Of a DNA stretch of 64,000 nt, positions 61,190 to 64,000 are shown in pieces. The notes under the pieces were generated by a model. It worked only from the letters and a program-made list of their open reading frames with translations. It was not told the origin of the DNA and searched no databases. Source of the DNA: Streptomyces sp. NBC_01298 (GTDB lineage Bacteria; Actinomycetota; Actinomycetes; Streptomycetales; Streptomycetaceae); NCBI RefSeq assembly GCF_035978755.1, contig NZ_CP108414.1:6758001-6822000 (forward strand), given 5' to 3'. A program made the position numbers and the translations under genes. Position 1 is the stretch's first letter, and every line of letters begins with the position of its first letter.

Positions 61190-63145
61190 ATGACGGCCGA
61201 ACTGGTCCGGGGGCAGAACCACCCCCTGTCCCGGAGCCGGGTGGAGATCAGGGTCTCGGCGGGCACACCCGTGCTCGCCCTGGCCCACCTCGGCGACGAC
61301 TCGGGCCGGCTCGCCGGCCCCGGGGCGCTCGCCCACCCCGGCGCCCGCACCCTTCCCGGGCTGGAAGTGCCCGGAGCGGCATCCGGGCAGCACCGCATAG
61401 CGGTCGACCTCGACGCGGTCGCACCGGCCGTCCACCGGGTCGGCCTCGTCCTGGTCCTGCCGCCCGGCGGGCCGGTGCACTTCGGCGCGGTCCCCGCCTC
61501 CTACGTGTCCGTGGCCGATCCGGAGGGCGCGGAGCTCGCCGGGTACACGCTGACCGGACTGGAGTCGGAGACCGCCGTCGTGGCCCTGGAGCTGTACCGG
61601 CGCCAGGGCGCCTGGAAGGTGCGCGCCGTCGGCCAGGGGTACGCCGCCGGTCTCGGCGCGCTCCTGACCGACGCGGGGCTGCCCGCCCCGGCCGCGGTCG
61701 AACTGGCCGCCGCCGCCCTGGGCACGGCTCCGGCCGGAGACATCACCCTGGCCGTCATGCCCGGCGGCCCGGCCCCGACCGTTCCGCGCGGGCTCCGGGC
61801 CCCGGCCACGGCCGAGCCCCCGGCCCCGGCGCCGGCGCCGGCGCCGGCGCCGCAGGAGGTTCCGGCCGCCCCCACGCCGCCGCCGATGCCCCCGGACCCG
61901 GGCGCCGCCGGCGGTCCGCCCACCATCAGCTACGCGCACCCGCGCCGCCGCACCAGCACCGAGCCGCCCGAGCCCGCGCCGCGCCCGGCCGAGCCGCCGC
62001 GACCCGGCGAGGCGCCCCGGCCCATCGCCGGGGACGCGAGCGGCTGGTCCATGGAGGAGCGGCTCTACAACCAGGTCTGGGGCATGTTCGAGGACCTGGC
62101 CCGCGCCGTCGCCGCCTACCGCGGAGCCGTCGAGTTCGCCGACTCCCGGATGGACCGCGAGCTCGACGAGGCCCTGTCCGACCCGCGCCACCGCCTCGGC
62201 GGCTCCGGCAACGCCGCCCGGGACACCGCCCGGGCCCGCCGCGAGGAACTGGTCGCGCGGGCGCAGGAGGTCCTCGACCGGGACCTGGTCCAGCTCACCG
62301 CCGAGTCCGAGGTGGTCGAGCCCGCGCTGCCCGCCGCGTACGCGCGCTGGGACAACCCCGTCTGGCAGGCGCACACCGTGCCCGCCGAAGCCCCCCTCGC
62401 CCTGCGCCTGGGCGACCTCCACCTGCCCGAGCGGCCCGACCTGCGCATCCCCATGCTGGTCCGGGTCCCGCCGGAGCGCGGTCTGTGGATCGACAACGGC
62501 CGCACCGGCTCCGAGGCGGCCATGGCGATGGACACCGACCGGCTGCGCCGCGCCGCCATGGACATGGCCGTCGCGCACGCGGCGCGGATGCTGGCCGCCC
62601 ACCCCGCGGACCGGTTCGCCGTCCACGTCATCGACGCGGCCGGCGCCGGAGCCGCCTCGCTGGCCCCGCTGGTGCGCGCCGGAGTGCTGGCCGGGGCGCC
62701 GGCGGCCGGGGCCGCGGGGGTCACCGAGACCCTGGAGCGGCTGACCCGCCGGGTGGACCTCGTACAGATGGCGGTGCGGGCCGGGGCTCCCGAGGACCTG
62801 CCGCCCGATGTGGACACCTCCGACCAGCTGCTGATCGTGCACGACTTCCCGCACGGCTTCGACGACCGCGCCGTCACCCGTTTGCGCTATCTCGCCGACG
62901 AGGGCCCGGCGGTCGGCGTGCACCTCCTGATGGTCGCGGACCGTGACGAGGCCTCGGCCTACGGGCCGCTGCTGGATCCGCTGTGGCGCTCGCTGATGCG
63001 GCTGTCGCCCGTCCCGGACAACCACCTCGCGGACCCCTGGGTCCACCACGCCTGGACCTTCGAGCCGGATCTGCCCCCGCAGGGCAGCCGGGTCCTGGAC
63101 CAGGCGCTGGAGCGGGTCGCGGCGGCCCGGGGACGCGCGCGGTAG
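61190..63145 (+). CDS. Large TerD-domain protein with C-terminal FtsK-like region
   Basis: 651 residues. The N-terminal TerD-like domain (about 1-190) has LSRSRVEIRVSAGTPVLALA, VHRVGLVLVLPPGGPVHFGA and LELYRRQGAWKVRAVGQGY. A Pro/Ala-rich linker (about 195-275) and a helical segment (EERLYNQVWGMFEDLARAVA) follow. The last 300 residues, LRIPMLVRVPPERGLWIDNG to AHAARMLAAHPADRFAVHVI, resemble a degenerate FtsK/SpoIIIE-like or kinase-like module; no Walker A motif (GxxxxGKT) is visible. TerD with a ring-ATPase-like partner is a known ter combination; here both may be one chain. The ATG at 61190 follows GGGGGAGGGG. Confidence 0.78.
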   Translation: MTAELVRGQNHPLSRSRVEIRVSAGTPVLALAHLGDDSGRLAGPGALAHPGARTLPGLEVPGAASGQHRIAVDLDAVAPAVHRVGLVLVLPPGGPVHFGAVPASYVSVADPEGAELAGYTLTGLESETAVVALELYRRQGAWKVRAVGQGYAAGLGALLTDAGLPAPAAVELAAAALGTAPAGDITLAVMPGGPAPTVPRGLRAPATAEPPAPAPAPAPAPQEVPAAPTPPPMPPDPGAAGGPPTISYAHPRRRTSTEPPEPAPRPAEPPRPGEAPRPIAGDASGWSMEERLYNQVWGMFEDLARAVAAYRGAVEFADSRMDRELDEALSDPRHRLGGSGNAARDTARARREELVARAQEVLDRDLVQLTAESEVVEPALPAAYARWDNPVWQAHTVPAEAPLALRLGDLHLPERPDLRIPMLVRVPPERGLWIDNGRTGSEAAMAMDTDRLRRAAMDMAVAHAARMLAAHPADRFAVHVIDAAGAGAASLAPLVRAGVLAGAPAAGAAGVTETLERLTRRVDLVQMAVRAGAPEDLPPDVDTSDQLLIVHDFPHGFDDRAVTRLRYLADEGPAVGVHLLMVADRDEASAYGPLLDPLWRSLMRLSPVPDNHLADPWVHHAWTFEPDLPPQGSRVLDQALERVAAARGRAR

Positions 63146-63210
63146 CGGTGGCCGGGCGGTCCGCCGCCCGGCCTCGATGACCGGCCGCTGACCAGTTCTT
63201 GGGTTCCCCT

Positions 63211-63239
63211 TTACCTTTCGCGCCCACCGCGGGTACTCT
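63211..63239 (+). promoter_or_regulatory. Candidate promoter of terC
   Basis: TTACCT (63211-63216) and TACTCT (63234-63239) lie 17 bp apart. Transcription would begin near 63246, just before the riboswitch-like P1 stem (63248), which supports the call. Confidence 0.5.
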
Positions 63240-63246
63240 GGTGAAC

Positions 63247-63412
63247 GCGGAGGGGAGTATTCCTGCTTTCCTGCTACGGCGTGCCCGTCAATACGGACTG
63301 CAATCGGTCCCGGGGCGCCGGCCCGTGGCCTCCTGGCCGTCCGGGTGGAAGAGACCTCCGGCAGCGATGACGCTGACAAAGTTCTGAGCCATCTGCCGGA
63401 GGCGTGTTCATA
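63247..63412 (+). promoter_or_regulatory. yybP-ykoY-like (Mn2+) riboswitch upstream of terC
   Basis: CGGAGG (63248-63253) can pair with CCTCCG (63355-63360) as the closing P1 stem. Just inside are GGGAGTA at the 5' side, GTCAATACGG near 63287, and GAGACC at the 3' side, all resembling conserved segments of the yybP-ykoY motif, which senses Mn2+ and often precedes TerC-type genes. CCTCCGGCAG (63355-63364) pairs perfectly with CTGCCGGAGG (63393-63402), which holds the Shine-Dalgarno GGAGG of terC. The two pairings exclude each other, as expected for a translational switch. Confidence 0.75.
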
Positions 63413-64000
63413 GTGGACGTTTCGTTGACTCTCTGGGTGCTGACCATTCTCGGTCTGGGCATCCTCATCGGCGCCGATTTCTTCATCGGCCGCAAGCCGC
63501 ACGACGTCTCCATGAAGGAGGCGGGCATCTGGACGGTCGTCTGGATCGTCCTCGCGGTGCTCTTCGGTCTCGGCCTGCTGGTGTTCGGGCACGGCCAGGC
63601 CTCGCAGGAGTTCTTCGCCGGTTTCATCACCGAGAAGTCCCTCAGCGTGGACAACCTCTTCGTCTTCGTCCTGATCATGGCGAAGTTCGCGGTGCCCTCG
63701 CAGCTCCAGCAGCGCGTGCTGCTGATCGGCGTGCTGATCGCCCTGGTCCTGCGCGCCATCTTCATCGCCGCCGGCGCCGCGATCATCACCAACTTCTCGT
63801 GGGTCTTCTACATCTTCGGCGCGTTCCTCATCTACACCGCGTGGAAGCTGATCCAGGAAGCCCGCAAGGACGAGGAGGAAGAGGAGTTCGAGGAGAACCG
63901 CCTCCTGAAGTCCATCGAGAAGAAGTTCGGAGTCTCCGACCGCTACCACGGCACGAAGCTCTTCATCCAGAACAACGGCAAGCGCATCATGACCCCGCTG
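63413..64000 (+). CDS. TerC family integral membrane protein (cut by window edge)
   Basis: 196 residues visible, open to the last base of the window. VDVSLTLWVLTILGLGILIG and ADFFIGRKPHDVSMKEAGI are followed by the TerC core ITEKSLSVDNLFVFVLIMAK and AGAAIITNFSWVFYIFGAF, and a charged loop (ARKDEEEEEFEENRLLKSIE). TerC/Alx-type proteins are membrane proteins of the LysE superfamily associated with manganese export and metalation of secreted proteins. The GTG at 63413 is the start reached by the GGAGG at 63398-63402. The riboswitch-like leader upstream would tie its expression to manganese. Confidence 0.93.
   Translation, partial: MDVSLTLWVLTILGLGILIGADFFIGRKPHDVSMKEAGIWTVVWIVLAVLFGLGLLVFGHGQASQEFFAGFITEKSLSVDNLFVFVLIMAKFAVPSQLQQRVLLIGVLIALVLRAIFIAAGAAIITNFSWVFYIFGAFLIYTAWKLIQEARKDEEEEEFEENRLLKSIEKKFGVSDRYHGTKLFIQNNGKRIMTPL

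What the first reader, a model, noticed from the sequence alone, without database searches (positions are those of the whole stretch)
63211..63413. Manganese riboswitch-like leader with mutually exclusive stems before terC
CGGAGG (63248) and CCTCCG (63355) close a yybP-ykoY-like fold with GGGAGTA and GAGACC near its base. The same CCTCCGGCAG pairs perfectly with CTGCCGGAGG (63393-63402), which contains the terC ribosome-binding site. Metal binding should free the site and raise TerC, in line with a manganese export role. This gives a clear, testable translational switch.
Basis: partly seen in the sequence, partly recalled or inferred. Interest (0 to 1): 0.7.

Follow-up and report, generated by a model that had tools for sequence, protein, structure and literature searches.

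The report
Alx-type manganese riboswitch before terC
The stretch in front of this Streptomyces metal-export gene is very probably an RNA switch that senses manganese and uncovers the gene's ribosome-binding site; it belongs to a known kind of switch, but the public RNA-family model for that kind did not pick it up here.

Summary
Window 63246-63361 is a yybP-ykoY-type (Mn2+ riboswitch) aptamer before an Alx-subfamily TerC gene (381 bits to TIGR03718 'R_switched_Alx', cut-off 246). Rfam RF00080 does not match it. That is no refutation: RF00080 also misses the E. coli alx riboswitch at E<=10, whereas a covariance model (R1) from 57 Streptomyces-type leaders finds alx at 41.5 bits, E 1e-6. The element lacks a real P2. 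The metal-contacting adenosine of L3 is kept in 101 of 101 aligned rows (100 distinct elements) and L1 GGAGUA in 100 of 101. The P1 3' strand (63355-63364) is perfectly complementary to the Shine-Dalgarno region (63393-63402). Over 99 actinobacterial loci the pairing is kept by matching changes: 62 have >=7 perfect pairs, against 20 on average (maximum 31) when strands are swapped. A TANNNT hexamer lies 7-9 nt before P1 in 79 of 79 leaders. R1 hits 225 of 394 genomes of the class; RF00080 exceeds its cut-off in 0 of 394. New member of a known kind; Mn2+ binding is inferred, not measured.

The parts
63210..63239 (+). predicted promoter: TTTACC (63210-63215), 18-nt spacer, TACTCT (63234-63239); RNA start predicted about 63245-63248 (inference)
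   Evidence: TANNNT hexamer 7-9 nt before P1 in 79 of 79 leaders (8 nt in 71); shuffled upstream stretches mean 17.7, max 28. The consensus scan found 0 promoter-like sites
63246..63361 (+). aptamer domain (alx/yybP-ykoY type); R1 match 63247-63361
   Evidence: R1 112.3 bits, but R1 was built from it and its relatives; covariation on loci outside the training set
63248..63253 (+). P1 5' strand CGGAGG
   Evidence: pairs with 63355-63360; invariant in Streptomyces-type leaders, covaries in other loci
63254..63259 (+). loop L1 GGAGTA
   Evidence: 100 of 101 model-aligned rows
63260..63263 (+). P1.2 5' strand UUCC, pairs with 63347-63350 GGAA
   Evidence: three pairs invariant; the outer one UA 38, CG 6, unpaired 34 of 78; helix 2
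63277..63320 (+). P3 arm: 63277-63282/63315-63320, 63284-63287/63311-63314, 63295-63300/63305-63310
   Evidence: covariation
63288..63294 (+). loop L3 UCAAUAC; 63290 is the counterpart of the Mn-contacting adenosine (A41 of L. lactis)
   Evidence: A in 101 of 101 rows; L. lactis UCA41AUUC from PMC6754395 passages
63322..63345 (+). P4 arm: 63322-63325/63342-63345 and 63327-63330/63335-63338
   Evidence: inner part variable: 92.9% and 66.1% of cells paired
63351..63360 (+). GAGA of L1 plus P1 3' strand CCUCCG (switching strand)
   Evidence: columns invariant in the 79-row alignment
63355..63364 (+). anti-SD strand CCUCCGGCAG
   Evidence: perfect complement of 63393-63402; counts; coevolution
63362..63375 (+). 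hairpin CAGCG-AUGA-CGCUG that can form when P1 is formed
   Evidence: 99.7% of 380 cells paired, nearly invariant; appears in the P1-forced fold
63393..63402 (+). sequestered Shine-Dalgarno region CUGCCGGAGG
   Evidence: GGAGG 10 nt before GTG 63413; unpaired probability rises when P1 is forced
63413..64000 (+). terC/alx coding region (runs off the window; 331 aa from this start; GTG 63404 is an alternative start)
   Evidence: PF03741; TIGR03718 R_switched_Alx 381 bits over cut-off 246.4 for the whole protein

Best explanation
The RNA starts just before P1 and carries a P2-less yybP-ykoY (alx-type) Mn2+ aptamer. Without Mn2+ the strand CCUCCGGCAG pairs with the terC Shine-Dalgarno region and translation is off. 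With Mn2+ (and Mg2+) loops L1 and L3 dock, P1 (CGGAGG/CCUCCG) is stabilised and captures the same strand, the downstream CAGCG hairpin can form, and the SD is freed, raising the Alx/TerC exporter. Shown by computation: the aptamer fold, the conserved metal-site letters, the mutually exclusive and coevolving pairings, a promoter-like element at fixed distance, and the target gene. Inferred: that Mn2+ is the ligand, where the RNA starts, and that switching occurs at translation initiation.
For: Covariation: 91.9% of 2584 cells paired and 14 of 34 pairs with two-sided changes in 79 leaders; 93.7% of 1661 cells and 28 of 34 pairs in 55 loci outside the training set (that alignment was fitted to the model). 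Reciprocal test: R1 finds E. coli alx at 41.5 bits, E 1.2e-6 in 14 kb. L3 adenosine in 101 of 101 rows, L1 in 100 of 101. Targets of 99 loci: 83 TerC, 4 GDT1/UPF0016 (3 of them fetched by RF00080), 12 other, among them 5 cation-ATPase-like (Pfam checked on 3 of the 5). SD pairing coevolves: 62 of 99 loci with >=7 pairs against 20.4 on swapping; among 50 loci with a variant strand, 20 against 2.6 expected. In 69 of 79 leaders the minimum-energy fold has the anti-SD stem and in 1 of 79 it has P1; forcing P1 raises mean SD openness from 0.02 to 0.35, rising in 78 of 79. No intrinsic-terminator-like site in 63100-63450.
Against: RF00080 gives no match to the window. R1 does not convincingly find E. 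coli mntP (13.4 bits, E 0.32), so it sees the alx-like form only. P1 and the anti-SD core are invariant inside Streptomyces, so they give no covariation there. Some proposed pairs are weak: outer P1.2 pair unpaired in 34 of 78, inner P4 66.1% paired. 21 of 83 TerC loci have fewer than 6 perfect pairs to the stretch before the gene; L142, L150 and L161 show none at the SD, and L132's 6-nt match is not at the SD. P1 costs a median 7.9 kcal/mol against the best fold, so the switch may be kinetic rather than an equilibrium. The promoter scan found no consensus site. No Mn2+ or expression data.
Confidence: 0.86

Rival explanations
1. The same aptamer, but its main physiological cue is alkaline pH or another divalent ion, with Mn2+ secondary.
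For: The E. coli alx leader responds to alkaline pH as well as Mn2+ (PMC9603457, passages); a review says the S. pneumoniae mgtA element binds Ca2+ more tightly than Mn2+ (PMC9495176, passage).
Against: L3 is of the L. lactis Mn type, with the adenosine kept in every row; targets are mainly TerC, with GDT1 and cation ATPases.
Confidence: 0.1
2. The aptamer is real but control is by Rho-dependent or other transcription attenuation, SD pairing being a by-product.
For: P1 competes with downstream pairing, which could equally expose or hide a Rho site; some TerC loci lack clear SD pairing.
Against: No terminator-like site; the pairing partner tracks the switching strand across genera; 64 of the 71 matches of >=6 nt hold an SD-like core, and 67 of 71 have an ATG/GTG/TTG within about 3-15 nt, the latter a weak test.
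Confidence: 0.12
3. A plain structured leader (thermosensor or protein-binding site) that resembles a riboswitch by chance.
For: RF00080 gives no match; the aptamer part alone is not unusually stable (z -0.19).
Against: The model built from it recovers E. coli alx; L1 and L3 letters kept in 101 rows; strong covariation.
Confidence: 0.02

Closest known systems
E. coli alx leader, Mn2+/alkaline-pH riboswitch before a TerC-family gene
   Same: Same kind of gene; same L1 (GGGGAGUA), UCA-type L3 (UCAUUAC), GAGACC and a short P1.2-P3 linker (alignment); found by R1 at 41.5 bits
   Different: The window is G+C-rich and its P1 3' strand pairs directly with the SD over 10 nt; in alx the strand GACCUUGCC faces GGCGAGGUC about 65 nt before the start (read by eye)
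Rfam RF00080 Manganese (yybP-ykoY), form with P2, e.g. E. coli mntP, X. oryzae
   Same: L1, P3 with L3, P4 and GAGACC layout; kinds of target gene
   Different: No real P2 in the window; not reported by RF00080
L. lactis yybP-ykoY Mn2+ aptamer (crystal structure)
   Same: L3 UCAAUAC against UCA41AUUC (PMC6754395 passages)
   Different: Four-way junction (passages); described as a transcriptional ON switch
C. glutamicum cg2157 (terC) yybP-ykoY leader
   Same: Actinobacterial terC with a transcribed yybP-ykoY leader (PMC3890552, table passage)
   Different: Predicted there by an earlier Rfam at 49 bits; its sequence was not compared here

Membership tests
Mn2+ riboswitch of the yybP-ykoY class, alx-like form | P1 with adjacent L1 (GGGGAGUA ... 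GAGACC) | tested here: met
Mn2+ riboswitch of the yybP-ykoY class, alx-like form | P3 interrupted by L3 with the invariant metal-contacting adenosine | tested here: met
   A in 101 of 101 rows; residue role from PMC6754395 passages
Mn2+ riboswitch of the yybP-ykoY class, alx-like form | homology to an experimentally studied member | tested here: met
   R1 finds E. coli alx, 41.5 bits, E 1.2e-6; mntP only 13.4 bits, E 0.32
Mn2+ riboswitch of the yybP-ykoY class, alx-like form | leader of a Mn-homeostasis gene | tested here: met
   TIGR03718 R_switched_Alx over cut-off; 83 TerC of 99 loci
Mn2+ riboswitch of the yybP-ykoY class, alx-like form | Mn2+-dependent folding and gene control | not testable with these tools
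   needs bench work
Rfam RF00080 (curated model, release 15) | score at or above 45 bits | tested here: not met
   nothing at E<=1 in 6 kb, E<=10 in 311 b, E<=10 in 2.4 kb, E<=0.001 in the own genome; E. coli alx is not listed either at E<=10 and mntP scores 41.6
Four-way-junction yybP-ykoY form | helix P2 | tested here: not met
   linker 4-14 nt in 76 of 78 read, 3-8 nt in 101 rows; the window's 13-nt linker shows at most a 2-bp stem in the P1-forced fold
Translational ON riboswitch | aptamer helix and SD-sequestering helix share a strand | tested here: met

The most novel reading that the evidence does not exclude
A P2-less, alx-like subclass of Mn2+ riboswitch is widespread in Actinomycetota (225 of 394 sampled genomes of the class) and nearly invisible to the current Rfam model. 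Its P1 strand and the Shine-Dalgarno sequence have coevolved into interchangeable partners, and its regulon includes genes that I did not find tied to manganese, such as an unnamed protein family and PGPGW membrane proteins.
Probability: 0.6. Interest if true: 0.5.

Novelty: new member of a known kind. Interest (0 to 1): 0.38.

Why it matters
It gives Streptomyces, for which searches showed me no report of this element, a directly testable Mn2+ switch. It shows that a current library model misses the alx-like form both in the 394 actinobacterial genomes sampled and in E. coli. A model like R1 could annotate many genomes and point to new manganese genes. The coevolving P1-SD pair is a clean natural example of how a translational switch is built.

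Tried and rejected
RF00080 as arbiter: no match, rejected as a valid negative after the alx control. In the 394-genome scans the stricter filters scored only 6 (RF00080) or 9 (R1) candidates a genome, so both tallies may miss some. A permissive scan of 20 of the 41 loci L127-L167 also gave no RF00080 at E<=0.1.

Nocardia L020 and L036 were left out of the leader alignment (78 of 80 kept) because their leaders are short; R1 gives 13.3 bits, E 0.22, on L036 and nothing at E<=1 on L020. From the SD test 2 of 101 rows were dropped: L140b (the same element as L158) and L160b (29-bit hit at the end of the stretch). A2 used 57 of the 79 rows of A1; near-duplicates were left out by eye. The loci taken for context were mostly among the best-scoring hits, not a random draw.

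The energy run had an off-by-one error in P1 and was replaced; its numbers are not used. In some searches the SD stretch was limited by the tblastn start, so L137, whose CCUUCGG/CCGAAGG is visible, shows no match. The exact pattern did not find the second element of the own genome; R1 did. Four papers (Dambach 2015, Price 2015, Martin 2019, Sharma 2024) were not held; nothing of them was read, and statements on them rest on the citing papers named.

Full report
What is there. The leader lies between a TerD-domain gene ending at 63145 and terC. The terC frame can start at GTG 63404 or GTG 63413; the latter sits 10 nt after GGAGG (63398-63402) and is the more likely start. The full protein, read from the genome beyond the window, is of the Alx subfamily (TIGR03718 'R_switched_Alx', 381 bits, cut-off 246.4).

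Is it the Mn2+ riboswitch family? Rfam RF00080 gives nothing at E<=1 in 6 kb, nothing at E<=10 in 311 b or 2.4 kb, and nothing at E<=0.001 in the whole genome. I therefore collected 80 loci by the TerC protein, aligned 78 leaders plus the window (A1) and counted a hand-written structure: 91.9% of 2584 cells paired, 14 of 34 pairs with two-sided changes against a shuffled mean of 7.1; no shuffle of 500 reached the observed value on four of five measures, 28 of 500 did on the number of pair types. P1 never varies in this set, so it says nothing there; the outer P1.2 pair is broken in 34 of 78 rows and the inner P4 stem is 66.1% paired.

Reciprocal test. A covariance model from 57 of these rows (R1) was run on two E. 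coli stretches with the alx and mntP leaders. It found alx with 41.5 bits, E 1.2e-6, and mntP only at 13.4 bits, E 0.32. RF00080 found mntP at 41.6 bits (cut-off 45) and did not list alx at E<=10. So the two models see two forms, and RF00080's silence on the window says little. In 55 loci outside the training set the structure pairs in 93.7% of 1661 cells, with 28 of 34 pairs changed on both sides (shuffled mean 23.0, reached by 1 of 500) and 356 such cells (mean 115, 0 of 500); sliding the partners gives at most 77 (the alignment was fitted to the model). The alx-like form has no real P2: 4-14 nt link P1.2 and P3 in 76 of 78 leaders read and 3-8 nt in 101 model-aligned rows. A review describes a three-way junction for the S. 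pneumoniae mgtA element too (PMC9495176, passages), so lack of P2 is not new in itself.

The metal site. From the crystal-structure paper (PMC6754395, passages): L1 extrudes A10, and Mn2+ touches N7 of an invariable adenosine in L3, UCA41AUUC in L. lactis and ACA48UACU in X. oryzae. The window has UCAAUAC. In the 101 rows outside the training set (100 distinct elements, one seen twice) the third L3 letter is A in 101 and L1 is GGAGUA in 100. The commonest L3 is UCAUCAC (35 rows); the four GDT1-linked rows are ACAUACU (3) or ACACACU (1), the X. oryzae type.

Spread. R1 matches in 225 of 394 genomes of the class (threshold E<=0.1; the weakest listed best E is 0.0039), among them 36 of 40 of the own genus, the own genome included, and in 28 of 198 drawn from the phylum at E<=0.01, 15 of them outside the class. 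RF00080 over the class draw of 394: 22 at E<=0.1, 0 over cut-off, while it rings in 3 of 14 control genomes, over the cut-off in 2. Of 99 loci examined, 83 precede TerC, 4 GDT1/UPF0016 (3 of these were fetched by RF00080) and 12 others: 5 cation-ATPase-like (L231, L233, L235, L239, L245), 4 an unnamed family (L131, L136, L165, L219), 2 PGPGW (L163, L244), 1 M50 peptidase (L232) (Pfam on L131, L163, L231, L232, L235, L244, L245). TerC, UPF0016 and P-type ATPases are named as Mn efflux families in a recent paper (PMC13274385, passages). The own genome has a second hit (51.4 bits) before a GDT1 gene, also unseen by RF00080 at E<=10.

The switch. The strand 63355-63364 can pair with P1's 5' strand or with the SD region. 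In Streptomyces-type leaders the anti-SD stem fills 97.2% of 704 cells; 7 pairs are invariant, the eighth covaries (CG 75, UA 2, UG 1) and the two outermost form in 22 and 38 of 78. Outside Streptomyces both partners change together: for example CCUCGAACG with CGUUCGAGG, CCUUCGGC with GCCGAAGG, CCUUGUG with CACAAGG. Counting perfect complements of >=7 nt, 62 of 99 loci have one (56 of the 83 TerC loci); swapping strands between loci gives 20.4 on average, maximum 31, in 300 rounds. Among 50 loci whose strand does not start CCUCCG, 20 have one against 2.6 expected. Against: 21 of 83 TerC loci have fewer than 6; L142, L150 and L161 show no pairing at the SD.

Energetics. In 69 of 79 leaders the minimum-energy fold holds at least 5 of 7 anti-SD pairs, in 1 of 79 at least 4 of 6 P1 pairs; forcing P1 costs a median 7.9 kcal/mol (0 to 15.1) and raises the mean unpaired probability of GGAGG from 0.021 to 0.354, rising in 78 of 79. 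The default is OFF in these folds; 8 kcal/mol is much to ask of metal binding, so co-transcriptional capture is the more likely route (inference). A hairpin at 63362-63375, compatible with P1 but not with the full anti-SD stem, is paired in 99.7% of cells but is almost invariant.

Promoter. A TANNNT hexamer ends 7-9 nt before P1 in 79 of 79 leaders (8 nt in 71); shuffled upstream stretches give 17.7 on average, maximum 28. The leaders are related, so part of this is descent. In the window TTTACC-18-TACTCT precedes P1 by 8 nt; the stricter consensus scan lists no promoter and no terminator-like site in 63100-63450. Together this favours a transcript that starts at P1 and is controlled at translation.

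What is known. E. coli alx and mntP leaders are reported as Mn2+-responsive, with alkaline pH adding to both, and mntP as acting on translation initiation (PMC9603457, passages). C. glutamicum terC (cg2157) has a transcribed yybP-ykoY leader (PMC3890552, passage). A comparative study placed yybP-ykoY in more than 75% of its taxonomic groups, which for actinobacteria were Corynebacteriaceae and Mycobacteriaceae (PMC3766115, passages). Searches showed me no paper that reports this element in Streptomyces; I judged by listings and, for the papers named, passages. Hence: a new member, in a poorly annotated lineage, of a known kind.

Noticed in passing
L131, L136, L165, L219 (downstream of R1 hits): An unnamed protein family (SRLLGMASQALDK ... 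DRAAIARYDYLLQTADPHRVEQIH) follows an alx-like element; the one member tested (L131) has no Pfam or NCBIfam match. Candidate new manganese gene.
   Followed up: partly
L163, L244: Small PGPGW membrane proteins (PF09656) directly behind R1 hits, L163 with a CCUUGUG/CACAAGG anti-SD pair.
   Followed up: partly
own genome C1:398540-398646 (L127): Second yybP-ykoY-like element, before a GDT1 antiporter, with X. oryzae-type L3; its switching strand faces a site about 50 nt downstream, far from the start.
   Followed up: partly
window 63208-63219 and upstream of relatives: A conserved CTTTACCTTT(CCTTGG)-like block overlaps the -35; in L016 it is an inverted repeat (by eye), perhaps a regulator's site.
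   Followed up: no
L020, L036 (Nocardia): terC leaders of about 57 and 94 nt keep P1-like and SD letters and a promoter-like block but lack P3/P4; perhaps degenerate or minimal elements.
   Followed up: partly
E. coli L246:5375-5500: Rfam 15 RF00080 does not list the alx riboswitch even at E<=10.
   Followed up: yes
L140 and L158 (G502:C1): Two alx-like elements, each before a TerC gene, about 1.2 kb apart in tandem.
   Followed up: no
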